64,000 nt of DNA from the NCBI GenBank assembly GCA_008692225.1, contig VICG01000016.1:1508001-1572000 (forward strand). The letters run 5' to 3'. A program made the position numbers and the translations under genes. The DNA comes from Monilinia fructicola. Lineage: Eukaryota > Ascomycota > Leotiomycetes > Helotiales > Sclerotiniaceae. The notes beneath the pieces were generated by a model that was not told the DNA's origin, did no database searches, and saw only the letters and a program-made list of their open reading frames with translations. The stretch's first letter is position 1; each line of letters starts with the position of its first letter. Positions 5,392 to 62,993 of the stretch are shown here, piece by piece.

Positions 5392-7988
5392 TTAACTATT
5401 TGTTTGATAAGGAGCAATACCCTTTTTGATTTCATAGACAATTTCTGCAGCTTCATCTGCACTCTTTGCTTCGAAATCGTAACGCTTTTCTTCGCGGGAT
5501 TTGTAGACCACGAGCTAATTTTGTTTTGTTAGCTTTTGATTTTGAAGTAAAGACAATGATAGTGATAGAAGATGAAAATGAACATGAAATAGGACTTGAT
5601 TTGTAAATATAACTTACCTTAAAGTTAGTTGGATGTCTTCTTGTAACTTTACAACCAACCACATTACTAAAATGTACTGTTGTCGTCTTGCCTTGCCCTT
5701 CAAACAAGGTCTTTCCAGTACTTGCAGGTAAAATATGCAAATATTCTCCATCTATAGCGATAACTCTTTCATTCATCCCTACGAATCTCATTGGCTGCTT
5801 TCTCCATACTGTATATCTCCTATAATTGGCAGAACCAAGTTCATCTTGCTTTACACTTTCCATCAATGGATGTGGAACCAACATTTGTGTTCCCTTTCGT
5901 GTCTTTCGGGGGTCAGGTCGATCGACCATGAGTGAATTGGGGGTGCTACTGGAAGGAGATCCAGTCATGGTCAAGGGTCCATCAGTAGCAAAACGACGTC
6001 GGTAGAGATCAAGTTCAGATGAATTGCCTATTGATCCCACTGTACGATCAAGATAAACAACAGTTCCAGATCCGGTAAGTTTAAGAACGTGGCCTGCTTT
6101 GTCTAGTTGTCTCTTCTTACAAACCGTATCAAGGACATCAGCCAAGTAAGTATCGGTAGTGACTTCTAGAGCGACCATTTGTCCAGGTGTAGCATTGATC
6201 GAATGAATATTAATACTCAATATCTTTTTAGTACCGCCACCTCTTGAAGTAGGTTGATTAAGAGCTGTCCCAATCGTAGGGGCATCTGCTAATGTGGAGT
6301 TTTTTCGTAATGCTGTCATTGTTGTAAGAAGAGGATTTTGATGAGGTTGAGTACCGAGGGGAAATGAACTATTAGGTTTTGGTGTATTGATAGGAGTAAA
6401 CTCTTCCTCTGCTTCAGATGGAACAATGGACTCTTGTTTGAATTGCGGTGTAAGTTTTTGATTTTCTTCGAATTGTTCATCAGTTGCCTCAACCAAAGCA
6501 AATTCATCAAAAGGCTTGGAATTTGATCTCGCTCTAGGTGGAGCTCGATTGTTGGCGAATGTAAATGAAGTGACTGGTTTGAGACGATCAAGAGGAGGAA
6601 AATCAGTATCTACCTCCCCATCATCTACCATCCGTAAGATCCATCGATTGACATTCAACTTCTCAGGAGCTATTGTTGGTTCAATCTTTTCCTCAAAATA
6701 CCTCCATAAACTTAAACCGATTAGATCAGTAATAGCTACAGGTCGATTGTGTGTTTCATCCTCATGAACAGTTCTCCTAATCAAAACCTCATAAGGCTTT
6801 GTGGTTGAAGTTGCAAATGGTGCCAATATACGAATATTAATAGGATTAGGATCTCCTTGTCCAGAAAGTGAAGCAAAACTCTCGAATGGCATAGCAGCTT
6901 TCGTTCGTTTAGCCATAATCATTGTCGTCAATAAGCTTTTAGGTTGTATCATACTAATAGGACGAGGAGGTGGTAAGGCTTGAAGTACTGGTGGTGCTGG
7001 TTTTGATCTCTTTGTTGGTGATCTTATAAGTTCTCGAGGTATAGTATTTCCAATATGCTCTGGGGCGGCAGTTATTGGTCCATCAACACTATCTAATATA
7101 GATGCACTGTCGATACTGCCACCAAATGTAGATGACATATCTGATCCCGAATCTTCATCTTCTTCCTCCTCTTCCTCTAAGAGATCACTGACTTGTCTCT
7201 TAACACCAAAATCAGGCTCCGGTGGATTCGTTCTAACCATTCTACCAGCCCTCGCGGCATTCCTATTTAATTCTCTTTGTTTTTGAAAAGCGGACGCATC
7301 AAATTCATTGTCAGATGACATCTCACTACTCGTAACAGTATCTCTCCTAGCCCTTTCTTTCACAACCTCTACAGCAGATTGAGAGCCTCTTCTTATGCCT
7401 GGCCCTGGAGTACGTGTTGGAGAACTTGCCGTAGTAGATTGTCGAAGGTTAGATCCACGAATGGGAGAAGAACCAGAACGATTTCGTATGGGCATTTTGG
7501 AGAATTTAATTTGTTGGGCTGCCCTTTGATCTCCATCATCATCGCTATCATCACTCAAATCACTACTATCTTCCTCTTCCATTTGTTCTCTCCTCCTTCT
7601 CCTTTTCGTAGCAATGCCCGGTCCCACTGTATCGCCTGCCCCCCCTGTGAGTAAGCCTCCTTCTTCAACTTCATCCTCGAGGCCAGAAGGTATCAGACCA
7701 GCTGATCTAGGTGGTGCTTGAAAATATTCTGATGTGATAGCTGTTGGTATTGGCGGGGAATGTGTTCGTTTTATATTTGCGGCATTCGTACGCCATCCAG
7801 CAGCTTTGAATCCCGGTGTATTTAAGAAACCATCATTAATCGTGATAAGCCTTTCACCAACACCATCTGCGATATTATTTAAATAATTTGATCTCAATTG
7901 ATAAGAGACAAGACTGTGTAGCGCGTTAGTTGAGGAAGCGGGATGTAGTTGAGAAGAACACTTACTCTTCTACTTGAATGACCGACAT
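5392..7988 (-). CDS. SIN1/AVO1-type TORC2 subunit
   Basis: Three exons (7966-7988, 5618-7913, 5392-5514) give 813 aa with an intact frame. The start was chosen because a 23-nt first exon (MSVIQVED) joins to LVSYQLRSNYL and DGVGERLIT, the conserved N-terminus of fungal AVO1 proteins. Its intron has a GTAAGT donor and a CTAAC branch. Order: an N-terminal disordered acidic/Ser-rich region, a CRIM domain around residues 320-470 (PFESFASLSGQGDPNPINI, then a DFPPLDR element), a Ras-binding-like ubiquitin-fold segment around 575-660, and a C-terminal PH domain around 700-810 (YRRYTVWRKQPMRF; last exon LVVYKSREEKRYDFEAKSAD). In the family this protein scaffolds TORC2 at the plasma membrane and presents AGC kinases through CRIM. 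The gene is divergent from the PRCC-type gene, with a 589-bp shared upstream region. Confidence 0.93.
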
Positions 7989-13723: not shown

Positions 13724-16700
13724 TTAGAGTTGTACCTCTAACTCACTATCCATAGGTTCGCAAAGTTCAGTTAAACTTTCCATGGGTTCATCAGAAGCAT
13801 ATTCATCATCTGAGTTGCCCCATTCTATTAATTCGTTAGTTTGATTTCCCTTCAGAATGAATTAAGGTATGGATGGTATCTTACCAGAAGCTTCCTCATC
13901 TGCTTCATCTACCATGTATCTTCGTATTTCTCTCCAGACATCTAGAACTTGTTAATTTGTTTTCCCCAATGGAGATGATATAAACTTACTATCCATTCTC
14001 AACTTGTAGTCATCAGCTGCTTTTCCAGGTTCAAAATATTGAAGACAAAGACTCCCGACATGCTCGATGTTAACCATAAACTGGTCTAACAGCTTGCACT
14101 CGCTGTACTATGTAGACTTCGTTTAAATAATCCAAACAATGGTAGCCCAACCTCTGAGTCATTTTCATCCGGTATAACGCCAGGTCTATTTCACTTGCTG
14201 ATCCAGTATCGTCAACCTCAATACCCAAATTGAAGATTAAATCTCCAAGGAAATCTTCAGTATCAGATCTGACGGCACTTTCATAATGAGTGAGAATGGC
14301 AGGAGCCCAATCAGAAGCTGTATATAAAGCGATCTTTGTGATTTCTTTTCGAGAAATGTCACTAGAGTTGCTCTGAAGATTAACGAGATCTTTGAAGAAT
14401 CGAAGGAATTCAGACCCTTCATTATTATCAATGTACCAAGCAGCCTTGGCAACGTGAGTGGCCATATCCTGAATAGCCTGTGGGCTCTCTGAGTGCTCGC
14501 AATATAACGTAGCAGCTCTTAAAAATGGAACCCAAGGTAATGGATTATTCCTTCTAATGCCCTGAGTAATTGCAACATAGATATACTGATCATGATTCAG
14601 CTCATTTGGGAAATGTAAGAGAGTGGCGATGATGGAGTGTGTTGCCTTCTGATTTTGATTGATCGTGAGAAGTTTTTCCGTCAGGATATTAGCGTGAGTC
14701 CTCGTCCAGTGCAAATTCATTCTTCGTTTCTCATCCCATGTGAAGGGTATCTTATTGGAATCAAAGAGACAATTGTAACCGAGAATCAGAACGATCAGGC
14801 TCAGGTGCTTCCGGGTCACAAACCGAGAGGAGTCGAGCTAAGAGATCGATGACGCTATCATATGAGACAGGTCTTGTTGTCGAATTTCTTTTGGCAATCA
14901 GCTGAAGCATTCGTTGTAACTGAGCATTATGGGCATCCCCAGTATCCGCACAGATGATGTCTAAAGTTTTCGAGAGAAATCCTGAGTCGAGAAGAACTGC
15001 TGCTTCATTATCTCCGAGGTCGGCAATATTGGTGAGTAAACCGAAGTAATCAGGCCAAGCTCTTAAACTATTATGAAAGTTTTCATATAATCTAATCAAG
15101 GAACCAATCAAATCCTGTAGTAAACGTGGATCATCAGGGACATGATGTCCATCAACACCAAAGCCGTATGCATATTGAACTCCGGTCTTTACCGAAATCA
15201 AAGCTCCGAGGACTGCAGCACTTGTTTCTGAACGGACGATGGCTTCGGGACACCTCATAAGCAAAAAGCGGAAAGACTCTGTGCACCTACAAACATAGTC
15301 AAGAAAGTCTCGACTACATTCTCCGCAATGTTGAAATTGTGTCCGTAAAGCAGTTACGAAAGTTCCGATATCTGGGACATCCTTTGAACGTGCTACAACT
15401 TGATCCAAATGACACATGGCAACAAAAATGGCGTGCTTTTCGAGTTCGTGCGAACCTGAGCATTTCCCATTGCTCAGATAATTCAAGTTTTCGAAAATGT
15501 TCCGAGCGAAGACAATATGAGCAGGATCATACAGGCAGTATTTTCGCAACACATGCTCGTTCTCAATAGTTATGTGGTTCGCCTGTCGTTGATTGATGAC
15601 TGCCTTCAATGGGTCTTTCTCCATACTTATATCGACAGCTGCCTTCCATGGATTGGCGCTCTTGATGTTCACCAATTCTTCCTTTGCGATATTCAAGGTG
15701 GTAGAACGTTGATAAAACAACATATAGGCACTGTAGTTCTTATCAAACTGTATGGGGTTATCAACAGTCGGATGTTCAACGCCGCCATAACAGGCTGCTT
15801 CCATGAAAGTGGGATCCCAAGAAGTCACTAGGTCATCGTTAAACTCGACCCAATCTCCTTTGCCATCAACTTGCGGTCGCTCTCGGATGTAGGAATAGTA
15901 ATGGCCCGACTCTGCAGTTCCCGAGTGAACAAGAACACCAACAAGTTCAAAAATATCCTCTTCAATTTCACCTGATTCATTCATGAGGTATTCAACCTTG
16001 TAAGGTCTCATATCGATCGATGATGGAAATGTGAAGTGGTCATTGATCTTGTTTCGTGTGAGCGTTCGAAGATTAAAATCAAATCTTTTCAAATGAAAGA
16101 TCAAATTGTCTGGCACATCCTTAAGGCAAGCTCGCTTAACTGCATCAACATGTCGATTGCAAGTCTCGCATTTTGTACTTGTTATCGCCTTCCATGGCCT
16201 CACCTTCGACATAAGCCTGTAAACTTTCTTCGAGGGACTTTTTCCCCTTGATATCACATTGAATGGCCGAGAAATCTTCTAGTCTCCCAGAGATATGAGG
16301 GCACTCCTTAGACTTGATCTGCTGTACCAATTTGCCTCCATAGAAAGATCTAACTTTGCGTTTATCTTCATCTGTCAAGTTTTCCCGTTCAAAACGATCG
16401 AAGAGTAGATTGTAAAATTCATCAACATCCATTTGGACGCTGACATCAATCTCTTGGTCTTCGAAAGTCGGAATAGACGCCGCAAACCCAGTCGGATCGA
16501 CATATCTTCTCATACTATTTTGCATGAAGGAGAACAATCGTTGGGTTTCGAGGAGGAGCTTTTGTGATCCAGGATCAGCAATATGTGAATCGAAGATGAA
16601 TTCCCTAAATGAAACGTTCATGAATAATTGCGTAGTCAGAGAGTTGAGGTAGCAAGTATTGGAAAGATTCTTCAGACCAACGTAGCCAGTTGGAGATCTG

Positions 16701-19700
16701 ATATACTTTGATCTTTCAAAGGTCTGCCACATCTCAAAAGTATAAGGGTTTTCGGATTCCGAGTCGTAAGGAGTGAGATTCGACATCAGAAGGGATATTT
16801 CTTGGTATTGATGAATGTCATCTTTGACCAGAGCAAATATAGTCTCTCCCATAGTATTCCGAGTTCTAGAATTTATAATGGGGATTTTTTGGGCAATAAG
16901 TCCATCGCTTTCGACATCCTCTTCACTCGAGAGAGTAGGGAATAAATGTCTGTTAAAGAGTCGAACTCCTAGATTCCCACAAGATAACTGTTGGTCACCT
17001 TGCTTCATGGCAGTTACAGCATGATGCAACAAGTTAGTCAACCCTTGAGTAATTAAATCAACAGTTTCAGGCAGTCCGACTTCTTCATAGTTCTTGTGAT
17101 CGAGGAGGAGGTTACCCCATTCATGTATGACATTGTTGAGGTCCAAATCAATTGGTGTTTCCAACAATCTTTTGAAAATCGTCAATGCAAGTAGAAACAT
17201 CTCCTCACATTGCCCGGGTCTCTCGACGGCCTCGGGAATTAATTTGGCTACCATTGGCCATAATGTAATGGCAACCTCTGATGTCGAAACACGAGCCGAA
17301 CTAGGATTGAAGGTGAATTTGCTCGTGACGTGTTTCAAGATGGCTTTCCTGACAAATGGTCGAATGTCATCCAAGAGAAGATCTTGTAGGAGAGTACTAC
17401 CATTGAGATGACCAACGAAGGTAATCCATAGAGTAGAATTTTGAGTGGCAACCTCAAGCAAAGCTTCGACGCTGGTCCAGATCAGATGAACTGAAGTTTC
17501 AGTGGTGGTTACTGATTTGGCAGCCTTCAACAAAACTAGGAGACGTCTCAAAAGTCTGTCATCGATACCGATCGTAGATGATGGAGGTAGAGCAGGGTCT
17601 ATGAAGAATTAGTTGCCGAGTTTTGGAGATGATAAACCATGTATAATTACCTTTAAGAAGTGTCGCCAAGCTGCTAACAAAGTGCATGGCTAGAGTTTGT
17701 CTAATTGCTTGCGGTGCACTACCCTCAAGGAATTTTGAATTGGCGATAGCAGCAATGAGTAAACTCATCGCTCGATCAAAACTAGCCGAATTCACAGACC
17801 CCTGCATGAGTTAGTCACGAACTTCTGAGAGGAAATGAATCAAAAACCTTTGAAGTTTGACAGAAAATATACTGCTTCAATCCATACAAACCATACAGAG
17901 CTTTGTATGGTTGCTCAAGTGGGAATATCTCAGTATATGGGATCTCAGGGTTACTCAGATCTTTCAGAATTCTGTCATAGACGGGAAACTGAACGAGGAA
18001 TGAATATATCTAGAATGAATGTTAGAAAATTTAACGGCTCGTGAAATATTGTTTTTACATACCTTTTCCGCCAGATTTTCTTGCATGCCAAGATAACTCC
18101 AAATTTGCTCAAACTTTCTGGCAATTTCCATTTGAAGGGGATCGTTACTAGTTGGTAATGGCGGGTCGGTATCATCACGACGTTTGACGAGAACAAGTCC
18201 CGTCAGGTTGAGATCTTCAACAGACTTGCACAGTTCAGATTCGTCGTGTTTGAACTCCTTTCCGCAATAAAATACCCGGCAAGAAGTAAATTCTGTTTCC
18301 TTTTGCAATTTTGCAACTAAAGTAGCAGCTGTATCTTGAGTACCTATGGTAAGTTCCTTTATTGACGACGTAGTCTCATCGAATGCTTGATACCTAATCT
18401 TGAGAGCAGTGCCCTGTACATCATTCGATGATGTAATAACAGCGGATCGCAACTTTGGGGTGACAAAGTGCACACTGCTTGAATAAGCCGCGAGAAATGC
18501 TTGCAAGGTAGCAAGTGATCGAGTGAAAAGTAATTCCTGTTCTTGAATCCGAGAATCAGGGGTCAACATGACCATATCCTCCTCATCCCCACCGATTCCA
18601 TTATTACTGAAAGTCGTCAATTTGCTTGCAGCACCTGCTAATTTGTCGAAACATCTTGCAATGAAAGCCAGATGTATCTCGCGTGCTTTTGTGCGAGGTA
18701 ATCCTTGCATGAATGAACCAACGTAAACACCGACGAGGTCTTCAATGGCCTGTTCATAGACTGCCACTTGAGGAGCGCTCTCGATTATTCGCCATAATTG
18801 CTCCATGGCGAGGGGGTCAAAAGATAAATCCAATTCGACATTCTTGTTTTGGTCAAGCTCTTTCTGCTTTTCCTCTAGCAAGGAATATAACCCACTCCTC
18901 ACAAATCGTAACGTGCCTTCCAAAAAGTATTTAGGTTCAAGTTTTGGTAGGTATTTCTGAAAGCAAATGGAAAGGTATCTATTGGCAAATTTTTGTTTCT
19001 GAAAAGCGTCATTCAAGATATCCCAACCGGCTAAGCGGTCGGCAGTATCGTTTGATTGAGATCCCACCAACAGATTCCAAAGACGTGTACCTAATTCGAT
19101 ATTTATAGTGTCGGGCTCAGTCAAAATGATTTGTTGTAGGATCTCGCGACGAGCAAGATTTGCAGGGCTATCATAAGCCAGAGAACGATTCCCGGCTATA
19201 TTCAATTCAAGCTCATCGACCATTAATCTTGTAAGACCATGCTGCGTGGCCAATGCCTCAAGATCTGGCATCAAACTTTGATTAAGCAGTGCATTGATGA
19301 CGCATATACTTCCCGGTGCAGTGTTCGTTTTGTTCGAAATATCCTTGATACAATCGAGGTAGATATCTTTCCGCGCTTCCTGGCAAGGTCCATTGACCAG
19401 CAATTCACGGAGGTGAGTTGCGGCAAAATTCTGAATATCAGGATAACCGTTGGGACAGCCATCGCTGGTAATTGACGACTCACGAATCAATCGGACACAT
19501 ATGTCGTAAGGAGGAGCATCAAGTTCTCTACGACCCGATTTGATCGCAATCTCTCTGAAGAGATTTTCGCAAAATTCTCTCATTGCGACAGTGAAGGACT
19601 GTATTGGAAGAGCTGCAACTTTCTGACATATGTAAAGGCATGACGGATACTCATATAGGTTTAAAACTTTCTTTACCATTTTCAAAATGGCCTCCACAAC

Positions 19701-22850: not shown

Positions 22851-23317
22851 GGTCTATATTATTTCAAGATAATAATAATAAATAATAAATAATAAATAAT
22901 AGAAGGTATATTATTATAATTATAAAAAAAGCTAAGTTTAATTTATATATAATTGAAGAATATATTAAAGAAATATATCAAAATTATAAAGCTTTTCTAT
23001 AAAATTTAAATTTTAGAATTAAATAAAAAAAAGTAAAAAATCGAATAAATAAATAAAAAAAAATAATATAAAAAATATATTTAAAAAGAATAATATTAAA
23101 GAATATATTAAAAAAGATAAAAAAGATATAAAAATAAAAAATATAAAATATAATATAATATTATTAATATATTATTTAATATATTTAATATATTCAATAT
23201 AGAATATAATTTAAATAAGATATATATTTATAATATAAGAGTATTTATATTTAGAATTAAAAGAAGTAAGAAAATAAATATATAATTAGTAAAGGATTTT
23301 AAAAATAATTTCTTTCT

Positions 23318-23461
<144 letters not shown>

Positions 23462-23465
23462 GCTA

Positions 23466-23624
23466 TACTAGCACTCGCGGAAAATAAATTTTTAGATTAT
23501 GGATTCGTAGAATTTTATTAGCCTCGAACGAAGTGAGGATTGGGGGTTTGGGGGCTAGCCCCCATTAAGTAATAAAATTCGAAGAATCCATAGTCTGAAA
23601 ATTTATTTTCCGCGAGTGCTAGTA
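23466..23624. mobile_element. 159-bp inverted-repeat MITE with TA duplication
   Basis: The ends TACTAGCACTCGCGGAAAAT and its reverse complement form terminal inverted repeats of about 55 bp. They continue through ATGGATTC and GAATTTTATTA with a handful of mismatches. TA dinucleotides flank both sides (23464-23465 and 23625-23626), as expected of a Tc1/mariner-type target-site duplication. The 50-bp loop is GC-rich (GGGGGCTAGCCCCC) and is shared with a fragment at 5.2 kb. There is no coding capacity, so it would depend on a transposase encoded elsewhere. Confidence 0.75.
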
Positions 23625-24233
23625 TATAAATAAATAAAAGTTAAAATAAATATTAAATAAGTTATTAAATAAATATCTAATATATAGAATAGAAAACTTA
23701 ATTAAAGATAAATAGATAATAATAAAAGAAAGAATAGATTAATAAATAATAATTTTTTTCTTTAATTAATAATTAATAATTCTTTTTTAATATAATAAAT
23801 AAGAAACCTAATAGAAGTATTAAAGATTATAATAAATTAAGAGATTATATATATCTTTTACTTTATATTTTTTATATTTTTATATATAATTAATTCTTTA
23901 TAAAGATCTTAGTTAAAAATAACTATTTATTTTAAATATCTCTTTATTTTAAAGTATCTCAGTTTGCTTTAGCTCTTAATTACTAATACTAAGTACATCT
24001 ATACTTATATTAAATCTTTAAACTACTTACTTTTATTCTACTTATATTTATCTATTTACCTATTATCTATCTAGTATAATTAGAACTATTTATCTATTTA
24101 ATAGTTTTAAAGCTTCTTTAATATAGCCCCGCTATATATATTTAATAATATATATATTAAAGCGATAATAATTAAATAAAGCTAGAGGTATAATAATATA
24201 TAAATACTTATAGCTTAAAGAAGAAATAAAGAA

Positions 24234-24901
24234 ACCGCTCTAGGACTAGAGAGAATTAATTATTATACTTTAATAATAAATATTTAAATAAGAATTATAA
24301 CTATAGCTTATCGTATACCTTATATTCTTATAATAAACTCCTTATAAAATTTATATTTTCTAATATAAATTAAAATTTTAATAACTTTTATAATATTATA
24401 TATTTTAATTTAAAAACTTTATTAATTATATCTTAAGATTAATAAAATATAAAATATAAAGCTATTTATTTTTATTTATTTTATTTTAAAAGTTATATTT
24501 CTTTAAAGTTAAATTTTTTTTAAAAAATCTAATATATAACGCTTTTTTATATAAAAATTAACGACTTTTTTTAAAAAAATTATATTATTAAATTTTATAA
24601 AATTAATATTTTATTAGAAAAATTATATTATTAAATTTTATAAAATTAATATTTTATTAGAAAAATTATAAAAATTAAATTAGTTTATTTTTATAAAACT
24701 TTTAAAAATTCTTTATATATTTATTTAAATATTATTAAAAATTTAATAATTTATTAAGGATATTAAAAGTTAAAAAAATAAAGGTTTTTAATATAAAAAC
24801 GTAAGGTATACGATAAGCTATGGCCGCAACTCTTACTTAAATAATAAATTGATATAATTCACCTTATCGATTTAACTAACGTTCTCTAGGGCTCTAGGGC
24901 T
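24234..24901. mobile_element. 668-bp decayed inverted-repeat element
   Basis: The left arm (24234-24322) and right arm (24802-24901) are inverted copies. They share an exact core, CTATAGCTTATCGTATACCTT on the left with its complement on the right apart from the first base, and weaker similarity outward to CTAGGACTAGAG versus CCTAGAGCCCTAGAG. In the 17-base stretch AAGAATTATAACTATAG against AAGAGTTGCGGCCATAG all six differences are transitions and the left copy is always A or T. The interior is AT-rich and non-coding. A 12-bp direct repeat, GCTAGAGGTATA, lies outside at 24181-24192 and 24929-24940. Confidence 0.6.
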
Positions 24902-24990
24902 ATTATTTATATTCTACTAATAAGTAGCGCTAGAGGTATACGAATTAACTACTAGGTACCTACCTAGGTAGGTATCTTCTTAATATTCAG

Positions 24991-26326
24991 CATCTGTACA
25001 AGTATAGGTAGCTGGAGCCCGGTAGTATACCTACCTAGGTAATCATATCAGTGTTCCAAGGTTATTGCAATATTTATTCCTTCCTTCACTTACTCATTCA
25101 TTCACTCATTATTCATATTCGTCACTCCTCATTTGTCATTCATCAATTATTCACACATTGGATACCTACACATTCTTTGTAAAAATGGCAAGAACCAATG
25201 ATTCATCGCCCCGGGTGTCTCTATGTGTGTGTGAGCCTGAGGCAAAGATACACTACACGAGTAGGTATTTACACATCCATGGATCCATGAATGCCCATTG
25301 TATTTTAGTCTACTGTAGTCTTCCTACCCCGATTCATGATTTGCCCTTGCAAGATCAAAACGGCTCTGACTTTTCATTCTACCTCTACTCTGCACTTTCT
25401 ACTTTTGTCTTTTGTCTTTTGTCTTTCGAAGCACACTGGGCAGATGATGGAAGTTTAAATCTGTAACCTCAGTAGTAAATTTTTGATATTCAAAAATCTC
25501 AAAACCTGACTAACCCACCTAGCATGTCCACGGGTATCCCTAGAGTACCACTTTTCTGGCAGGATGCCATATATTCGTAGAATCCTCCCTAACTCTTATT
25601 ATAGCGTATATCTTACGTATATAATGGTAGGAAGCTTTGAAGCGTCCACATTGAAAGATTTTCGGAATACTATATTAGCTTCAAAATAGCTTCAAAATAG
25701 CTTTGAATACTAAATATACCATTCTCAATTCCACTTCGATTCTTCAACTTTACTTCAATTTCACTTTGACTCTTCAACTTCACTTTTAACAACATCATCA
25801 ATACATTACATCAATACCATCAATACCATCAATACCATCAATACCATTAATAGTAAGTTATTCCATTTGTTAAGAATTGCTTTTTCTACTTCGCTTCCAC
25901 TTCCCCTATTTCGAAAATGCCCCCCTCCCTCTAATAACGTATTAACCACTTTAGATTTTGAATAGTTTCAATACTACCAATAACAATAACAACAACGATA
26001 ATACTATAGATTGTGATATGTTTAAATATACCCAAATAAAGCAATACATTTAAAATAGGCCGAAATCTTGTAGTATGCTTAAATAAGCTTAGCTTAATAT
26101 ACTAAAATCAACCAATTAAGCTCAAAATAAGATATGGATTATTAGTATTAACTCCTGTTTCTATGCTATATGCTCAGAGATCCATGGATTCCCAAATGTT
26201 ATATATCAAAAAACCATTTTGAATATGGAATTATGCCATAAACCGGATATGGCATATAGCCATATTTGTGGTACTCTAGGGTATCTCAAACTTCCAAGGT
26301 TCACCAAGTATCCATGAATAAAACTA
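24991..26326. other. Intergenic region between the AT-rich block and the MITE
   Basis: No gene was found. It carries a GTACCTACCTAGGTAGGTA palindrome-like stretch near 24956-24975, (CAATACCAT)n near 25805-25850 and two ATCCATGGAT palindromes (25275-25284, 26180-26189). One 133-codon open frame near 25.1-25.5 kb lacks domain character and was not accepted. Confidence 0.5.
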
Positions 26327-49693: not shown

Positions 49694-50988
<1,295 letters not shown>

Positions 50989-52977: not shown

Positions 52978-55900
52978 ATGATTCTACCCAAGGTAGCCAT
53001 TTGGGCTGCGGCTCTGAGTCTTACCGTCTCTACCGTTTTGAGTGAGAATAATGGTGGGAATCTGAGTGACAAAGTAGCAAGATCAGAGGAACAGGCTGGC
53101 CTGTAAGTTTCCATTCAGATGTTTAAGTTTTAGATGTTGAAATTTCCATTTGAATAGATGTAAAAATATCTACTAACTTTCGGCTTTGTAGCGGAAAACG
53201 TCTTCTGTTCTCCTCGAATCCTGAAGATGATTCGATTGCTAGCCTCGTGAACTCTCAAGGACTGACAGATCCCTCTTCGATTGCCAATTTCCTACGTTCG
53301 CCAGGTGTTGGCTTGGATGATGGATCAATTTCTGATTTTATCTCACAGCTATTTGGGGGAAGTGGTAACTCGGGATCGAGAGGTTCAAACAATCCTGGTA
53401 GTCCTGGTAGTAGCCCAGGTACCAACCCTAACTTTCCTGGGGGCCCAGGTGGCAATAACCCGGTAGGCACTGGAAATGGAGGGTCGAATAGATTTCCTCA
53501 ATTTCCTAACTTTCCTGGAAACTTCGGAAATGGTGGTGGTTTAAACAACCCGGGGGGCAACTCTCCAGGAGGTGTTGGTAACGGTGGTGGAAACGGATTC
53601 CCTCCCTTTCCTAAATTTCCAAACTTCCCTGGAAACTTGGGGAATGGAGGTAATCCAAACAACCCTGGAGGCAATAATCCAGGAAATAATCCAGGAAACA
53701 GTCCAGGAAATGGTGGTGGATGGTCTCCATATACTCCTCTACTCCAATTTCTACAAGGTGAAGGAGTAAATCCATTTTTCATCTCCCAGTTCCTGAACGG
53801 ATTGGATGCTTCTACTGTTGCCCGCATTTTTACGTAGAGCTGGCGTCACCTCCATCGCCGAATTCCAACAAGAGGTCGCTAATAGTCTTGTATCAATTGG
53901 CGATTTTCCTCACCTTTTTGGATGCTCTTTCACGATACAACTTCTTACAACTGTTAGACTTCCCCTTCATTGTAGGCTTTCCATTCCCACCCATTTTCCC
54001 AACTAGGTCGAGCGTGTTGATAAACACACCATCGCCATCTCCTTCGACTTCTTCCACTCGCAATCCAATTGGCGGTCCTTCCTCATCCTCTTCATCTAGT
54101 CGAAGTACGACTAGATCTACGACATTCATTCTCCCGAGCCCTTCAACTTCATCAACCCGTAATCCAGTTGGAGGCCCTTCATCCTCTTCATCGACCAGAA
54201 ATATCATTGCAAGTCCTTCATCGTCGACACGTAGGACTATTGGAGGCCCTTCAACGTCATCCACACGTTCTTCTTCCTCAACCCGAATAGTAGGTGGCCC
54301 TTCAACTTCCTCAACACGATCATCTTCATCAACCCGAGTTCTTGGTGGCCCTTCAACTTCCACTTCTTCAAGCCGAACTACGACTCGTCCAACGTCATTC
54401 ATTCTCCCAAGCCCTTCTACCTCTACAACCCGCAATCCAATTGGAGGTCCTTCAACTTCTTCCACACGTTCGTCTTCCTCAACCCGAGTTCTTGGAGGCC
54501 CTTCAACTTCCTCGACACGTTCCTCTTCATCAACCCGAATAGTAGGTGGCCCTTCAACTTCCTCGACACGTACCTCCTCAACACGTTCGTCTTCCACACG
54601 TTCGTCTTCATCAACACGAGTACTTGGCGGTCCGTCAACTTCCTCGACACGTTCCTCTTCATCAACCCGAATAGTAGGTGGCCCTTCAACTTCCTCGACA
54701 CGTACCTCCTCAACACGTTCGTCTTCCACACGTTCGTCTTCATCAACACGAGTACTTGGCGGTCCGTCAACTTCATCGACACGTTCTTCTTCATCAACAC
54801 GTTCCTCCTCGACACGCTCCTCTTCGTCAACTCGAATAGTAGGAGGCCCTTCAACTTCCTCGACTCGTTCCTCCTCAACACGTTCGTCTTCATCAACCCG
54901 AATACTTGGTGGCCCTTCAACTTCCTCAACACGTTCTTCTTCCTCGACACGTTCCTCTTCTTCAACTCGAGTTCTTGGAGGTCCATCATCTTCCTCAACT
55001 AGAACATCATCTTCCTCGACGCGTTCATCTTCCTCAACTCGAGTTCTTGGTGGCCCTTCAACTTTCCTCGACACGTTCATCTTCCTCGACACGTTCGTCT
55101 TCCTCAACTCGAGTACTTGGAGGTCCATCATCTTCCTCAACACGTTCTTCTTCCTCGACACGTTCATCTTCCTCAACTCGAGTTCTTGGTGGCCCTTCAA
55201 CTTCCTCGACACGTTCTTCTTCGTCAACTCGAATAGTAGGTGGCCCATCAACTTCCTCGACACGTTCTTCTTCGTCAACTCGAATAGTAGGTGGCCCATC
55301 AACTTCCTCAACACGTTCTTCTTCCTCGACACGTTCCTCTTCAACTCGAGTTCTTGGGGGTCCTTCATCTTCGTCCTCAACTAGAACATCATCTTCGACT
55401 AGAAGAACTTCATCATCTTCGTCAACCAGAGGTCTTGGGGGTCCTTCATCTTCATCCTCAACCCGAAGTTCATCTTCGTCAACCAGAGGTCTTGGGGGTC
55501 CTTCATCTTCGTCTTCAACTAGAACATCATCTTCGACTAGAAGAACTTCATCATCTTCATCAACCAGAGGTCTTGGGGGTCCTTCATCTTCGTCCTCAAC
55601 TAGAACATCATCTTCGACTAGAAGAACTTCATCATCTTCATCAACCAGAAGTCTTGGGGGTCCTTCATCTTCATCCTCAACCCGAAGTTCATCTTCATCA
55701 TCCAGAATTGTTGCCGGACCCTCCTCTTCATCAACGCGTTCATCCTCTTCAACACGAAATGTTGGAGGTTCTTCGTCATCATCTTCATCGACTCGAAATA
55801 TTGGTGGATTTTCAACTTCCTCAACTAGAACTTCGTCCTCATCCACGCGAGGTCTTGGAGGTCCTTCATCATCTTCATCCTCTTCAACCAGAAGTTCTAC

Positions 55901-58900
55901 TAGAAGCTCGTCTTCCTCAACCCGAGTTGGTAGCCCTTCGACATCATCTTCAACTCGTTCGTCTTCTTCGACTCGAAATGGTGCAGGTCCATCGTCATCT
56001 TCATCTTCATCTCGAAGTTCATCTTCCTCAACCCGAGTTGGTGGCCCTGCATCCCTCCTCCTCTACGAGAAATACTTTGTCATCTTCAAGCTCTTCATCA
56101 AGATCATCATCACAAGGAGTATCTACCAGTAGAACTTCAACTTCTACAAATTTGGTGGCAACTCTAAGGACCTCCAGTACTAGCTCATCGACTTCATCTA
56201 GGGTATCGTCTAGTTCATCAAGTTCCTCTCGTAGTACCACTCGATTGCAAGGTGCATCGACGAGCTCTACCTCCGTATGATTTCTCTCAATTTTACCGCA
56301 TCTATTACAGTATGGTATGGAAACTGATTCTAAATAGTCGACTGGAACAAATAGATTATCCACTAGCTCATCAACTCGATCGAGCTCTTCTGTATGGTTT
56401 TCTTCATCTGGTCTCTGATAATATTAATGCTAATTATTCGATAGTCTACACGATTCAATGGATTATCATCAAGCTCTTCATCTCGCTCAAGCTCTTCATC
56501 TCGCTCAAGCTCTTCATCTCGCTCAAGCTCTTCCTCTCGTTCAAGCCCTAGTTCCGTACGATCACTCTTATTTGTTTATTGTAAATAATCCTAACAAATT
56601 GGTAGTCATCTTCTTCCTCCCGCAGTACATCAGTGGTAGGACAAGGTCCCAGCTCCTCATCGACTCGGGTAAGAAATTTTTCTTCCGTCTTATATCTACT
56701 CCAACAGGTATGGCGAAATATAAATACTGACATTTGCCTGTAGACATCTTCCTCTTCATCCCGCAGTACCTCAGTTACAGGCCTAGGGAGCAGCTCTACT
56801 TCATCTAGGTCATCGTCCTCTTCGTCCCGCAGTACCTCAGTTGTAGGTTTAGGTCCCAGTTCTACTTCGTCTAGGGTAAACAAACCTCCTATAATCAATC
56901 ATACTTATCCCTCCAACATGCCCAGATTTGGAAACTAATATTTATAAAGTCATCATCGTCGTCATCTCGAAGTACCTCAGTAGCTTTGGGAACTAGTTCT
57001 ACATCATCTCGGGTACAGAAATATCCTCATATCTTATGCTCAGGTAATATAGTGATGCAAATGCTGATTGTTTCATAGTCGTCCTCTTCTTCCTCTCGTA
57101 GTACCTCAGTGGTTCTAGGAGCCAGTTCTTCTACATCCAGGGTAATAAAATTCTCCTCTATCATCCACCCCACACAAAATTGCCATGTCAAGACTAATAT
57201 TTCCGCAGTCCTCCTCCTCCTCTTCTCGCAGTACCTCGGCGGTCGGTCTAGGGCCTAGCTCTTCGTCATCCAGGGTATGTAAACATTCCCCTGTGCTTTC
57301 TACACGGCAATAATTTTGATGCTAATATTTATAAAGTCATCTTCCTCATCCCGATCCAGCTCTAGTTCCTCTCGAGTAAGATATTTTTCTTTGCGCCGAT
57401 CGCTCATAGTATTCGAAAGGCACATGATTGTTGACATATTATAGTCTTCATCTTCTTCATCCCGAAGTACATCGGTCGCTTTAGTAGCGAGTCCGACTTC
57501 ATCTACTTCATCCAGGGTAAGATATATTCTAATCTACCCCTGATATCCTATGCTATTTAAGAACCACAGAATTAACTTATTATAGTCATCATCATCCTCC
57601 CGAAGTACTTCTGTAGCTCCAGGGCCTAGCTCTAGTTCATCTCGGGTAAGATATATATTCTCATTGAGCCCGGAATTGCTTTATGGTTGAAAATAGTACA
57701 TAATTGTTAACATGTTATAGTCATCATCTTCCTCTTCATCTTCCCGCAGCACATCAGTTGTAGGTCTAGGAGCTAGCTCTACTTCATCTACTTCATCCAG
57801 GGTAAAAAATCTGTTCCATTAGCCCTGGTCTTCCATGCCACCGAAAAAGATTCCATAATTAACAAACAATAGCCATCTTCATCATCATCTTCCTCTCGCA
57901 GTACTTCTATTGGACAAGGTCTTAGTTCTACCTCAAGTTCCAGCCGGGTAATCTTAATTTATCTTCGCTCTATTTTTCATAAGGTTAATTTGTTTCTAAT
58001 TTAATTTAACTTATAGTCTTCTTCCACTTCTTCACCTTCAAGTTCACGATCATCGTCTTCATCCCAGTTGGTACGTCTTTCCATGTTAATCTGCATCGCA
58101 TAAATACCCTTATCATATGTACTAATAAACTTTACAGGGTTTAGGTACAACCTCAAGTACTCTAAGAACATCTACTACGCTCCTTTCATCCACAAGAACT
58201 TCATCTAGCAGCTCTGTCAGTCCGAGTTCGAGCGGTTTAATAGTATCACCAAATGGTCGTTGTGGTCCTCAAGGTGGTTTTTATACATGTCAAGGAAGCG
58301 CCAATGGAAATTGTTGCTCCAGATTTGGTTTCTGTGGTATTGGAGCCGATTGGTGTGTTGTCGGTTGTAATCCTTTGTATGGAACTTGTGGATTGGCACA
58401 GTATTCATCATCATCGAGTTCAATTTCTTCAACAGTATCTAGGTCATCCTCGGCATCTGTTGTGGTAAATGATACTTCTGTTATCGACACTATAAATGCT
58501 AAGATATTAAATAGGGACAAGGATCAAGTACTAGTTCCACTGCACGAGTCAGTACAACTTCAAGTTCTAGATCGAGCTCAAGTTCAACGGCACGACTTAG
58601 TGGAACTTCAAGCTCTAGTTCTAGGTCTTCATCAACATCAGCCGTGGTTAGTCTTTTCTTTCTGAACCCTTATTTTCTCTGCCTTTTTTATAATATTGAT
58701 CGATCAAATAGGTTCAAGGATTGAGTACCACTTCAACATCAAGATCAGGTACACTGAGTACCAGTACAACATTAAGAGCGGCTACATTAAGTTCAAGTTC
58801 AACATCAAGAGTATCTACATCGTCCTCCAGTACTAGAGCCGTCGCCTTAACAAATAGTGGAACTTCAACAAGGTCAACCTCATCTGTAAGCCCTTCGGCA

Positions 58901-59674
58901 AGTGCTTGTAGACCAGTCGCGGCTCCAGCTGCAACTCTCGCGTTAACAGTCACTGATTGCTGTCAATATTATGTCACAAAAGCCGGTGACACATGTGCCA
59001 ATATTGCCTCTGGGACTGGTATTCTCGGTTTAGATGTTTCGCTTCTACTCCTTTTGAATCCACTTTTGAGATGTGGAGGACCAGGACCTCAAGTTGGCGT
59101 CGCCGTCTGTGTTTTGAACATCAACTTATCCATCGCCGGTTCTTTGATAGCACCATCTTCTTCCTCCTCAGTATCATCTTCAGCAATTGCAACTCCAACT
59201 CCATCTCAAGCCGTTCCATCGAGCTTCTTTATTCGAGCTTTCAATTCAGGAACGGGTGCTGATGGAACTGATTTGATGATTCAACAAGCTGCAGAATACT
59301 TTGCTGGGTTTAATTTACCTTATGGTCAACAAGTATTCCCATTCTCGTACGACCCAGCTACAGGATATTTGACATCGGGTCTGTATATTTTTATGGGCAA
59401 CAGCATCTTTTGTACCACCGTCAATTAAAGTGGCACCAGTGGGTTATACAGGATGGGTAGTACCAGCTTGGCCATTGGTTTGTAGCGTGGATGGTAATCT
59501 GAAGGTATTGTGTACGGCAAATGGAAATATTTATGGGAAATTTTATCTTATCAATGGTATGTTATCAATTTCTAATGATTCGGTTCGATCATCAAGATTG
59601 GGTTACTAACATATTAAATAGCAAATGGCGATGGAAACACTGAACTCGCCATTGGAAAACAGTGCAACAACTAG
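52978..59674 (+). CDS. Secreted mosaic protein: Ser-rich repeats, CBM18 and LysM-like domains, 19 exons
   Basis: Corrected length is about 1,830 aa. Exons: 52978-53102, 53192-56274, thirteen small exons from 56338 to 58070, then 58138-58464, 58515-58646, 58712-59556, 59622-59674. It starts with a signal peptide (MILPKVAIWAAALSLTVSTV). A Gly/Asn/Pro-rich FPGNFGNGG-type segment follows (around 90-215), then a helical stretch (ARILRRAGVTSIAEF, FLTFLDALSRYNF), then Ser/Thr/Arg repeats of the SSTRVLGGPSTSSTR type to about 1,068, and repeat-encoding micro-exons (1,069-1,379). Next come a hevein-type chitin-binding domain with eight Cys (GRCGP, YTCQ, NCCSRFGFCG, DWC; around 1,419-1,465), a LysM-like Cys segment (DCCQYYVTKAGDTCANIASG; around 1,614) and an unrecognised C-terminal module ending IGKQCNN. 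Probably extracellular and chitin-bound. Surplus bases break the frame at 53827-53831, 53904-53907, 55063-55065, 56053-56055 and 59388-59392. Confidence 0.82.
53380..53740 (+). repeat. Gly/Asn/Pro-rich coding repeat
   Basis: Imperfect units encode NNPGG, FPKFPNFPGN and LGNGG within exon 2 of the mosaic gene. The composition is collagen- or elastin-like but without a strict GXY period. It probably forms an extended, flexible region. Confidence 0.7.
54045..56046 (+). repeat. Coding minisatellite (SSTR-VLGGPSTSSTR type)
   Basis: About 2 kb of tandem units of roughly 36-54 bp encode STRIVGGPSTSSTRSS, STRVLGGPSTSSTR and later SSSTRGLGGPSSSSSTR variants. A larger block (about 54610-54735) duplicates the preceding one nearly perfectly, so expansion occurred at two scales. 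A long antisense frame over 53893-55380 exists because the repeat lacks stop codons on that strand. One surplus T (55063-55065) and one surplus C (56053-56055) interrupt the frame. Confidence 0.85.
56275..58137 (+). repeat. Tandem array of 13 micro-exons with phase-0 introns
   Basis: Exons: 56338-56391, 56445-56555, 56606-56668, 56744-56875, 56950-57012, 57079-57141, 57209-57274, 57337-57375, 57445-57516, 57586-57645, 57721-57801, 57873-57947, 58017-58070. Lengths are 54, 111, 63, 132, 63, 63, 66, 39, 72, 60, 81, 75 and 54 nt, all multiples of three. Most encode variants of SSSSSRSTSVVGLGPSSSSR. The 132-nt exon carries two units with no intron between them. The intervening introns are 50-75 nt. 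Several share starts (GTAAGATATAT) and ends (ACATATTATAG, TTATTATAG), showing exon and intron were copied together. Confidence 0.8.
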
Positions 59675-61161
59675 TTCAATTATTGTTGCACCAGTTGATC
59701 TCTATCTCATCGATGCAACAGAAGAAGAGGAAGGTTAGACGAAGAGATCTGATACATGAAATGTTTTCAATCAGTTTGCTGGCCTGGAAAGATTCTCTTA
59801 AATTCTCTACTTTTGTCTGGTATTTGGTTATTTCTTTGATTTGAATTGGTTCAAGCTGGTCTGTTTCTCTTTTTGGCCGAAGGCCCTTACGGCGAATGGA
59901 TAGAGGATACACGGTTAAGATTTAGAGACTTGAAAAATTATGTGTCAATGTGTTTATGTGGTTTTATCAAGTAGCTAGTTTCTTGGGTTCCGAAATGCCA
60001 GAAAGGATTTGTAAGGTCTTGAGGGCTGAAATTGGTGTTCGTTTATCTGAAATTTCTTCCCCTATAATTGCCGAGTTGTGAATTCAGTCTACGGTCATCC
60101 TGTAGTTCACAATTGATGGGTTTTTACTTATCGTTAATTGATCATCAATCCCATAAGATGTGTTTGTATATCTCTTTTATTTACTCGTAGCATCTCCGGC
60201 TTAGTGGCCTATGACTTTAAAGTTCAGTTTCTTCAATTCCACAAATCTATCAATTCTATCAAGTCCATCACCGATTCTATCAATCCTCACAATCCTTTCC
60301 AAACCCAAAAAACTCTCTCGTATTCTCCCGCGTAAAAATCAAACTCTGCAAAAACTCATGATTTTTCCTCTTGTTACAATAACCCTACCTACCACAGCAT
60401 CTCCCAACCCCAAAATCTTACAACCATCAAATGTCCCATCCTTCGCCAAGCCCACAACCATGCACCCCCGCATCTTCCCTCTTACCTCGTACGTAATACC
60501 ACCCACGAATCACCCACGAATCACAGGCGAATTTCCCGCAAAACCAAGCACGCCATCACATCACGAATTTTCCCTCCCAATTTTCGCCATCTTTCCTCGC
60601 AGTTCAACATCAACAATGTAAGGAAGATTTCGTAACGAAATCGGGATTCCCGAGGATTTGCCCGCGCTTTCTCACCGACTGGCTTGCTTGCTTACGGGGA
60701 ATCGTGATCTCATCTTAAGGTTACTGTAGATTAATGGTAGGGAACTGGTGGTATTGGTTGGGTTTTTCTTACTACTCTCTTCTTCAAGGTTCAATCACAA
60801 CCAAGTCTTTAAGATGAAGTCTCGGTGTTGCATTTGAAAATCTTTTACCTCCTTTTTCTCTCTTCTTGTTTTGATGCTGATTGATGCTGATGTGGATGTT
60901 GATTGCAGGTTTTCACGTTGCAGGTTCCTGGGATCGATACCTCTTTCTTTCATCTTCAGTTGGATAGTTCTATATCTGAAATCTTGGGTTTACAGAGTAC
61001 GTGTTGAGTTTATTCTTGCTCTTCTCCTCGAGCACGTACGTACGTACGTACCTACCTACCTCCCTACTGTACCTCTGTTACACCAAACCCATCCCCATCC
61101 CCATCCCCATCTTCACACCACTCACCCACCCATGCAATAAACCAAGCACCTCTCCTCCAAA
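59675..61161. other. Intergenic region upstream of the permease
   Basis: No gene was found. There are CGTACGTACGTACCTACC repeats near 61035-61060 and CCCATC repeats near 61086-61110 in the probable promoter/leader of the permease. An open frame around 60.2-60.6 kb lacks features of a gene. Confidence 0.5.
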
Positions 61162-62993
61162 ATGTCAGACCCTCAACCCCAACCCCAATCCCACTCCCAC
61201 TCCCACTCCCTCTTCCACTCAAAATCTCCCATCCACGTGATCAACCCCGACGACAAAGACACCGAATACGGAATCCCGCCATCCGACCTCCCCAATGACG
61301 GACCCCCCATCCTCGCCGACAAACTCGCGCGGTCCCTCTCAGCCCGCCAAGTACAAATGATCGCTATCGGCGGCACAATCGGCACCGGCCTCTTTCTCGG
61401 CACCGGAAAATCGCTCGCCACCGGCGGCCCCGCCTCAATCCTCATTGCCTACTTCATCGTCGGCTTCATCATTATGCTGACGATGCTGTCTCTGGGAGAA
61501 ATGGCCGCCTACGTCCCCATCGCCGGTAGCTTCTGCACGTTTGCGGGCCGCTATGTGGATGACGGGCTGGGGTTTGCGCTGACGTGGAATTATTGGTTTA
61601 ACGATGCTGTGAGCACGGCGGCGGATTTGGTCGCGCTGCAGCTGGTTTGGGCGTACTGGGGGATTTGGGGTTGCCCGGGTGGGGCCTCGCGTTGATCTTT
61701 TGGGTCTTTTTGATCGCGGCGAATATCATCACGGTGAAGGCTTATGGCGAGGTGAGATTCGATGGTTCCCGTGACGATGTCGAGGTTGTGCTAATTTGGG
61801 GTGTAGCTGGAATATTGGCTGAGCTTGTTGAAAGTTGTTACTGTGACGGTGGGTTTCTTTGGTCATTCTTGGCTTTTTTGGGGGGGGTTGGGGGTACTAA
61901 TGTCGTTGCAGATCTTTATCATTCTTGGGATTGCGGTCAATTGCGGAGGAAATACTTCTCACACGTACCTCGGAGCACATTATTGGTACATTGGCGATGC
62001 ACCCTTTGTCGGTGGTATTGGCGGCTTCGCATCCGTCTTCGTCACCGCATCATTCGCATGTAAGAAAGGCTCCAACCCCTCACAACCCCCGAAGCTAACG
62101 CCCTTCCAGACGGCGGCACAGAATCCATCGCGATAACTGCCGGGGAAACCAAGAACCCCACCAAGAACCTCCCCCGGGTCGTAAAGAACGTCTTCTGGCG
62201 CATCCTCATCTTCTACATCCTCTCCGTCCTCCTCATCGGCCTCAACGTCCCCTACAACTACCCCAACCTCTCCAGCAAGAAAACCGCCACCTCCCCCTTC
62301 ACCATCATATTCCAAATGGCCGGCGCTAAAGCCGCCGGATCCTTCATCAACGCCGTGATCCTCACCTCGGTCATCAGCGCGGGAAACCACGCTCTCTTCG
62401 CCGGCACCCGTCTCCTCTACACCCTGTCCGTCGCCGGCCACGCCCCCCACTTCCTCGGCAAGCTCAACCGCAACCGCGTCCCCTGGGTCGCGGTCCTAGC
62501 CACCAGCGCCATCAGCGGCCTCTGCTTTGGCGCGAGCTTCATCGGCGCCGGGCAGCTGTGGAGCTGGCTGCAGAATCTCGTGGGCGTCAGCAACCAGATT
62601 GCGTGGATCTCGATCGGCGTGACGTCGATCCGGTTTCGGGGCGCGTTGGAGCGCCAGGGCAAGACGCACCTGCTGCCCTTTAGGAACTGGACGTACCCGT
62701 GGGGCCCGTGGCTCTGCGTGCTGCTGAACGTGCTGATCGTGCTGGTGCAGGGGTGGAGCTCCTTCAGCCCGCGCTTCAGCGCCGTCGATTTCGTCAGCTA
62801 TTACATCGAGTTGCCCATCATGGCCGTCATGTGGCTGGGCTGGAAGTGGCTGAAGGGGACGAAGGTCGTGAGTTATGAGGACATGGATCTGGTGACTGAT
62901 GTGCATGTGATTGATGAAGCGGATCTCAAGGAGAGGGAGAGGGAGAAGACGGCGAGGGGGAAGGCGGAGGCGATCTTAAGATGGATCTTCTAG
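61162..62993 (+). CDS. Amino-acid permease (fungal YAT/APC family), one frame break
   Basis: Four exons (61162-61751, 61807-61848, 61912-62059, 62110-62993) give about 554 aa after correction. The hydrophilic His/Ser/Pro-rich N-terminus is followed by the APC signature IAIGGTIGTGLFLGTG in TM1, LSLGEMAAYVPIAGSF, ALTWNYWFNDA, AANIITVKAYGE|LEYWLSLLK, GNTSHTYLGAHYW, AGETKNPTKNLPRVVK, ISAGNHALFAGTRLLY and WISIGVTSIRFR, about 12 helices in total. It is a plasma-membrane proton symporter for amino acids; the specificity cannot be read from the sequence. The frame breaks after AYWGIWG at a G4 run (61667-61670). One additional G restores GLPGWGLALIFWVFLIAANI. Introns 1 and 2 flank a 42-nt micro-exon. 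Codon use is much more GC-rich than in neighbouring genes. Confidence 0.9.

What the first reader, a model, noticed from the sequence alone, without database searches (positions are those of the whole stretch)
56275..58137. Cassette array: 13 tandem micro-exons, all symmetric phase 0, in one fungal gene
Seen in sequence: thirteen consecutive exons of 39-132 nt, every one a multiple of three, separated by 50-75-nt introns with good donors and acceptors, most encoding a variant of one Ser-rich unit. Fungal genes rarely exceed a few introns, and repeats in fungal wall proteins are normally intronless. Because all introns are phase 0, any exon or set of exons can be skipped without breaking the downstream CBM18 and LysM-like domains. 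Inference: a splice-tunable stalk that sets how far the chitin-binding domains stand from the wall or cell.
Basis: partly seen in the sequence, partly recalled or inferred. Interest (0 to 1): 0.88.

Follow-up and report, generated by a model that had tools for sequence, protein, structure and literature searches.

The report
Thirteen-exon repeat array, fungal secreted protein
A gene for a probably secreted, chitin-binding protein of a brown-rot fungus carries a serine-rich repeat whose copies sit on separate small exons, apparently made long ago by copying one exon together with its intron; whether the cell skips exons to vary the protein's length is untested.

Summary
From 56275 to 58137 there are 14 introns (50-75 nt) and 13 exons (39-132 nt), all multiples of three, all phase 0. 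The chain is far beyond chance: 14 linked in-frame introns, against at most 2 in 200 shuffles and at most 3 in 40 strands of 10 kb from the same genome. The genome matches Monilinia fructicola Mfrc123 by scaffold length. Codon use suggests real splicing: Arg codons at exon ends are NGG in 9 of 10 cases against 0 of 19 inside; the one other NGG lies at a unit junction without an intron, apparently the scar of a lost intron. Intron ends share descent, so exon and intron were probably duplicated together, which explains the shared phase; not every test agreed. Exon copies are old and protein-constrained (dS 1.46, dN 0.15). A related repeat just upstream has no introns, is less diverged at silent sites and holds many tandem copies. 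Exon skipping would keep the frame but is unproven and needs 170-281-nt splices; the gene's 18 placed introns are 50-89 nt. Best reading: a collagen-like or Tetrahymena-LRR-like exon array, probably spliced constitutively.

The parts
52978..53102 (+). Probable first exon: ATG and signal-peptide-like start (MILPKVAIWAAALSLTVSTVLS)
   Evidence: signal peptide by eye; linkage to the array inferred because of frame breaks between
53103..53191 (+). Probable intron 1 of the gene, 89 nt, phase 2 (unlike the array)
54029..56274 (+). Ser/Thr/Arg repeat (STRSSSSTRVLGGPSTS type) that reads through without introns; many tandem copies; apparent 1-nt frame breaks near 55068 and 56045
   Evidence: breaks by eye
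56197..56208 (+). Donor-like unit end TCTAGG-GTATCG read as codons inside the long exon
56275..56337 (+). Array intron 1
56338..56391 (+). Array exon 1 (54 nt)
56445..56555 (+). Array exon 2 (111 nt), with an internal 18-bp tandem repeat x4.3
56606..56668 (+). Array exon 3 (63 nt)
56744..56875 (+). Array exon 4 (132 nt): two 66-nt units fused without an intron; AGG codon at the junction (56807-56809)
56950..57012 (+). Array exon 5 (63 nt)
57079..57141 (+). Array exon 6 (63 nt)
57209..57274 (+). Array exon 7 (66 nt)
57337..57375 (+). Array exon 8 (39 nt), shortened unit
57445..57516 (+). Array exon 9 (72 nt)
57586..57645 (+). Array exon 10 (60 nt)
57721..57801 (+). Array exon 11 (81 nt)
57873..57947 (+). 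Array exon 12 (75 nt)
58017..58070 (+). Array exon 13 (54 nt)
58071..58137 (+). Array intron 14, last of the array
58138..58464 (+). Exon with CBM18 / chitin recognition domain, phase 0 both sides
   Evidence: PF00187 27.4 bits, 29 with neighbours; wheat germ agglutinin
58515..58646 (+). Ser-rich exon (132 nt), phase 0 both sides
58712..59385 (+). Ser-rich, LysM-like and C-terminal region; apparent frame break near 59385
   Evidence: LysM 13.7 bits, below cut-off; 5bum_A E 6e-5; break by eye
59557..59621 (+). Probable last intron, with TACTAAC; phase 1 by eye

Best explanation
The region is a tandem array of one exon-plus-intron unit inside a gene for a probably secreted protein with a CBM18 and a LysM-like domain. 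One Ser-rich repeat unit with a phase-0 intron at its end was duplicated several times, so every later unit inherited the same phase (inferred from intron similarity, splice-site register and phase). The introns are removed in the ordinary way, most likely all of them, giving one long Ser/Thr-rich, probably O-mannosylated linker in front of the chitin-binding domains (splicing indicated by codon constraint, not by RNA; O-mannosylation is general knowledge, not tested). At least one intron was probably lost precisely later, leaving the double unit in exon 4. The protein sequence is kept by selection while silent sites and introns have drifted. Symmetric phase is thus a by-product of history; it also keeps the frame open through unit gain or loss at the DNA level.
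For: The 14-intron in-frame chain is far beyond chance. Arg codons at exon ends are NGG in 9 of 10, internal ones in 0 of 19 (Fisher p 1e-6, fused junction set aside), and the fused junction in exon 4 is the only other NGG among the array's Arg codons. In the last 30 nt of the introns, with column composition kept, pairwise similarity varies more than in any of 2000 permutations; neighbours are more alike (5'25+3'25: p 0.008; 5' p 0.018, 3' p 0.044); introns 5 and 8 share their last 15 nt, ending in the odd acceptor AAG. None of 300 local shuffles at each of five block sizes reaches the mean similarity of the intron cores. Ten units: aa identity 0.82 (codon-shuffled 0.55), fourfold-site identity 0.38 (shuffled 0.28), dS 1.46, dN 0.15. 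Introns outside the Ser-rich part have other phases (53103 phase 2; 59557 phase 1, by eye). Loss outweighs gain of introns in fungi at large (PMC8476143, passages).
Against: Similarity of exon pairs does not track similarity of their flanking introns (Mantel r 0.08 and 0.14, p 0.29 and 0.14; canonical exons only, r -0.01 and 0.06), and exons show no neighbour effect (0.797 against 0.794). At the first 25 nt alone the variance test is not significant (p 0.16), the order test on cores gives p 0.085, and the best single pair of intron cores (score 20) is within the range of shuffles (95% point 23). Alignments that maximise Ser matches bias dN downwards, and dS is near saturation (pS 0.64; codon-shuffled 0.74). 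Apparent frame breaks elsewhere in the gene leave room for a decaying gene. No RNA and no relative could be examined.
Confidence: 0.72

Rival explanations
1. Splice-tunable stalk: exons are skipped in regulated sets, so the distance between the N-terminal part and the chitin-binding domains varies, as in the titin I-band.
For: All 13 exons are symmetric and every skip keeps the frame, while intron retention does not. Five of 14 donors lack G at position +5 (counted by eye), which could allow variable use. A regulated exon switch is reported in Trichoderma (PMC11121469, passages).
Against: Symmetry follows from duplication alone. Skipping one exon needs splices of 170-281 nt, against 50-89 nt for the 18 introns placed in this gene. 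Skipped exons are 4.4% of alternative splicing events in Sclerotinia sclerotiorum. No anchor seen for a stalk (by eye).
Confidence: 0.1
2. The repeat array was first intronless, and introns were inserted one by one at the same AGG-T site of each unit (introner-like or other gain); exon 4 keeps an unfilled site.
For: An array of a related unit without introns lies directly upstream. Exon 4 and the site at 56197 show unit ends without an intron. The exon and intron similarity patterns do not match.
Against: Introns are diverged, not near-identical, yet share descent with a neighbour effect. A DNA search of the whole genome with the array finds only itself (that search skips simple repeats and very common words). 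Upstream Arg codons are NGG in only 1 of 82, so the upstream repeat does not offer the same site.
Confidence: 0.15
3. Decaying gene: the apparent breaks of the frame at about 53830, 55068, 56045, 59385 and 59665 are real, and the array is a remnant.
For: Five apparent 1-nt breaks within about 6.8 kb (by eye).
Against: The array itself has no break in 933 coding nt, intact splice sites and strong protein constraint. Two conserved neighbours seem to have the same kind of break: the amino acid permease near 61665 (by eye) and the ubiquitin hydrolase gene near 14770, where only 16 nt separate two parts of DUF3517 in different frames. Assembly indels are therefore likely. The published assembly is a PacBio-Illumina hybrid (PMC6795239, passages).
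Confidence: 0.1

Closest known systems
Tetrahymena 90-bp-exon LRR gene arrays (PMC6564038, passages)
   Same: Tandem arrays of one repeat-coding exon, one intron phase throughout, explained there by duplication of the exon-intron unit and unequal crossing over.
   Different: There exons are exactly 90 bp, introns phase 2, in thousands of genes, the youngest with similar introns. Here exons are 39-132 nt, phase 0, the unit found at one locus, with old introns.
Fibrillar collagen genes with 54-bp exons (stated in a passage of PMC5395295, which cites Yamada 1980)
   Same: Extracellular repeat protein built by amplifying a DNA segment that contains one small exon.
   Different: Collagen exons follow Gly-X-Y multiples and code for a triple helix (recalled); here a Ser/Thr linker with variable exon length, in an ascomycete.
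Titin I-band symmetric exons (PMC12580133, passages)
   Same: Many symmetric exons that can be dropped in frame.
   Different: Variable inclusion is reported for titin and unshown here.
Schistosome micro-exon genes (recalled; the paper looked up is not held)
   Same: Secreted proteins with strings of symmetric small exons.
   Different: Their exons are mostly 36 nt or less and skipping is documented (recalled).
Introner-like elements of fungi (PMC4457414, search listing only)
   Same: Many introns of common origin in one genome.
   Different: Those multiply to many places (listing and recall); here related introns lie in one gene at one unit position.

Membership tests
Exon-intron unit tandem array (collagen / Tetrahymena LRR kind) | One exon encodes one repeat unit, boundaries in the same register | tested here: met
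   9 of 13 exons carry the canonical unit (exon 4 twice); they start at the Ser run, two of them with one Thr or Pro codon first, and all 9 end in AGG or CGG
Exon-intron unit tandem array (collagen / Tetrahymena LRR kind) | All introns of one phase | tested here: met
   14 of 14 phase 0
Exon-intron unit tandem array (collagen / Tetrahymena LRR kind) | Introns share descent | tested here: met
   3' ends: 0 of 2000 permutations; neighbours p 0.008; but 5' ends alone p 0.16 and Mantel tests not significant
Exon-intron unit tandem array (collagen / Tetrahymena LRR kind) | Exactly uniform exon length (Tetrahymena) | tested here: not met
   39-132 nt; ten units of 60-81 nt
Micro-exon gene | Exons of 36 nt or less | tested here: not met
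   shortest is 39 nt, 0 of 13 qualify (limit from PMC11121469, passages)
Regulated cassette exons (titin I-band kind) | Symmetric exons | tested here: met
   13 of 13
Regulated cassette exons (titin I-band kind) | Variable inclusion in mRNA | not testable with these tools
   no RNA data
Introner-like elements | Similar introns in other genes of the genome | tested here: not met
   whole-genome DNA search with the array: only itself at E 1e-3; simple repeats and common words are skipped there, and single introns were not searched one by one
CBM18 chitin-binding domain | Match to PF00187 over its cut-off | tested here: met
   27.4 bits alone, under the cut-off of 27.8; 29 with neighbours in frame, over it. 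Wheat germ agglutinin E 5e-10 summed over its four domains; single-domain chain 8vu6_A E 4e-4
LysM domain | Match to PF01476 over its cut-off | tested here: inconclusive
   13.7 bits, cut-off 20.9; 5bum_A, listed as Chitinase A, E 6e-5; that this chain is a plant LysM is recalled
GPI-anchored wall protein | C-terminal hydrophobic anchor signal | tested here: inconclusive
   none seen by eye in the two possible end frames; apparent frame breaks near 59385 and 59665

The most novel reading that the evidence does not exclude
A fungal extracellular protein whose stalk length is set by skipping of up to 13 in-frame cassette exons, a titin-like or schistosome-MEG-like splice dial in an ascomycete, lying beside an intronless array of a related repeat whose length is instead set by DNA slippage.
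Probability: 0.1. Interest if true: 0.82.

Novelty: new variant of a known kind. Interest (0 to 1): 0.5.

Why it matters
Exon-intron unit arrays are known from collagen and Tetrahymena. One in an ascomycete chitin-binding protein was not found in five paper searches (open-licence papers only, listings). The gene sets two arrays of related repeats side by side, one split by introns and one not. The split one looks older and less homogenised (dS 1.46 against 0.91 and 0.85; no tandem-repeat hit spans one of its introns). It is thus a natural test of whether introns shield repeats from slippage and unequal exchange, and of precise intron loss at a known site (exon 4).

Tried and rejected
Opposite-strand reading: the chain scan found no run above 2 on the minus strand of the window. 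Introner family: no relative elsewhere in the genome by DNA. The unit pattern has 9 hits, 8 at this locus and one lone hit on C3; its reversed control has 1, so the lone hit is at chance level. Other CBM18 places: 7 further matches at E 1e-3 (two of them close together on C2) lack the R-[ST]TS-[VAI] motif in six frames within about 1.5 kb on each side. Paralogue by the C-terminal region: only itself at E 1e-3. Exon-intron co-similarity (Mantel) was expected under unit duplication and was not seen; both sides are near saturation. The ubiquitin hydrolase domain also changes frame near 16.2 kb, but an intron fits there, so I do not count it. No intron count for Leotiomycetes was found. A predicted M. 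fructicola effector with PF00187 and PF00734 is mentioned in print (PMC8959702, passage); I could not tell whether it is this gene, and the five pieces scanned show no PF00734. One paper holds all terms and was seen as a listing only.

Full report
Where it is. The window lies on contig C16 of a 44.0-Mb genome of 20 contigs. Contig C1 is 4,238,823 bases, exactly the largest scaffold of Monilinia fructicola Mfrc123, whose published assembly has 20 scaffolds and 44.05 Mb (PMC6795239, passages). I take this as the species; the small difference in total size was not followed up.

The observation. The exons read without a stop into an exon with a CBM18 domain and, after two more phase-0 introns (58465-58514 and 58647-58711), into a LysM-like domain; from 56050 to 59425 the spliced frame is open for 777 codons (the last part is probably beyond a frame break). 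Under a generic intron rule the longest in-frame chain is 14 with 15 candidates; 200 shuffles never exceed 2. With a looser rule the maximum is 3 in 40 strands of 10 kb from contig C1 and 2 in the other 13 strand pieces of the window; if exon lengths need not be multiples of three, chains reach 5 in 3 of those 40 strands.

Signs of real splicing without RNA. In 9 of 10 exons that end in Arg, the codon is AGG or CGG, giving G before the donor; none of 19 internal Arg codons is, the fused junction apart. The double-length exon 4 has exactly one other such codon, at the junction of its two units. Its first half is most like exon 11 among the ten units (0.92), not its own second half (0.82), which fits a precise intron loss better than a recent within-exon duplication; at this divergence that is suggestive only. 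Kept introns would break the product in all 14 cases (13 by an in-frame stop, one by length).

Origin. None of 300 local shuffles at each of five block sizes reaches the mean similarity of the intron cores. With the nucleotide make-up of every column held fixed, the 3' ends still show a structure of closer and more distant relatives (0 of 2000 permutations reach the variance) and neighbours are more alike (p 0.008 for both ends together). Results on the other side: the 5' ends alone give p 0.16, the order test on cores p 0.085, exons show no neighbour effect and exon similarity does not follow intron similarity, and the best single pair of cores is within the range of shuffles. I read this as old duplication of exon-intron units with later reshuffling or saturation.

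Selection. Ten canonical units keep 82% of residues and 62% outside Ser-Ser columns, against 55% and 20% after codon shuffling (60 shuffles); Ser codons agree in type (TCN or AGY) in 95% against 69%; fourfold sites agree in 38% against 28%. Pooled dS is 1.46 and dN 0.15. The upstream array of a related unit has dS 0.91 and 0.85 (dN 0.18 and 0.11) in its two clean stretches, 14 and 8 units cut at GGP, and fourfold identity 0.52 and 0.54 over all pairs, 0.52 and 0.70 between neighbours (0.38 between neighbouring units of the split array). Tandem Repeats Finder reports many arrays there, and within the split array only inside exons 2 and 4. Expansion thus seems to proceed within exons, not across introns. 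That introns shield repeats is inference from one gene.

The rest of the gene. A signal-peptide-like start at 52978 and a phase-2 intron lie upstream; linkage to the array is inferred. CBM18: PF00187 27.4 bits alone, 29 with neighbours (cut-off 27.8); wheat germ agglutinin at E 5e-10 summed over four domains, and E 4e-4 for a single-domain chain. LysM: below Pfam's cut-off, but E 6e-5 to 5bum_A, Chitinase A. Apparent 1-nt frame breaks near 53830, 55068, 56045, 59385 and 59665 (by eye) were not mended; one more change of frame between about 53960 and 54029 is unresolved and may be an intron. Two conserved neighbours seem to show the same kind of break, so assembly errors are the likelier cause.

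Function. Most likely one long Ser/Thr-rich linker (69% Ser+Thr in the array) before chitin-binding domains. Skipping is permitted by the frame, but the evidence does not ask for it: exon skipping is a minor class in S. sclerotiorum (4.4% of events, PMC7749757, passages), and skips would need splices of 170-281 nt where the 18 introns placed in this gene are 50-89 nt. That short-intron fungi splice mainly by pairing the ends of an intron is recalled.

Known or new. The construction is known from collagen (passage and reference title in PMC5395295) and Tetrahymena LRR genes (PMC6564038, passages), and symmetric skippable exons from titin (PMC12580133, passages). I found no fungal example, which list open-licence papers only. 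Homologues could not be searched.

Noticed in passing
window 61141-62993: Amino acid permease gene (PF00324) with an apparent 1-nt frame break near 61665 (by eye); probable assembly indel.
   Followed up: partly
window 14073-17608, minus strand: Ubiquitin hydrolase gene (UCH, DUF3517) with a frame change near 14770 that leaves little room for an intron (16 nt).
   Followed up: partly
window 23000-24999: Very AT-rich block (G+C 0.07-0.19 per 500 nt) with a pure TAT run of 46.7 copies at 23322-23461.
   Followed up: no
window 50496-50779: TAA microsatellite of about 95 copies, upstream of the gene.
   Followed up: no
window 56197-56208: Unit end TCTAGG followed by GTATCG, read as codons inside the long exon: a donor-like site without intron, perhaps a relic or a proto-site.
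   Followed up: partly
window 56876-56949 and 57275-57336: Introns 5 and 8 share their last 15 nt exactly, ending in the unusual acceptor AAG.
   Followed up: yes
window 5456-7969, minus strand: AVO1/Sin1-type gene (CRIM and SIN1_PH domains) in one open frame of 838 codons.
   Followed up: no
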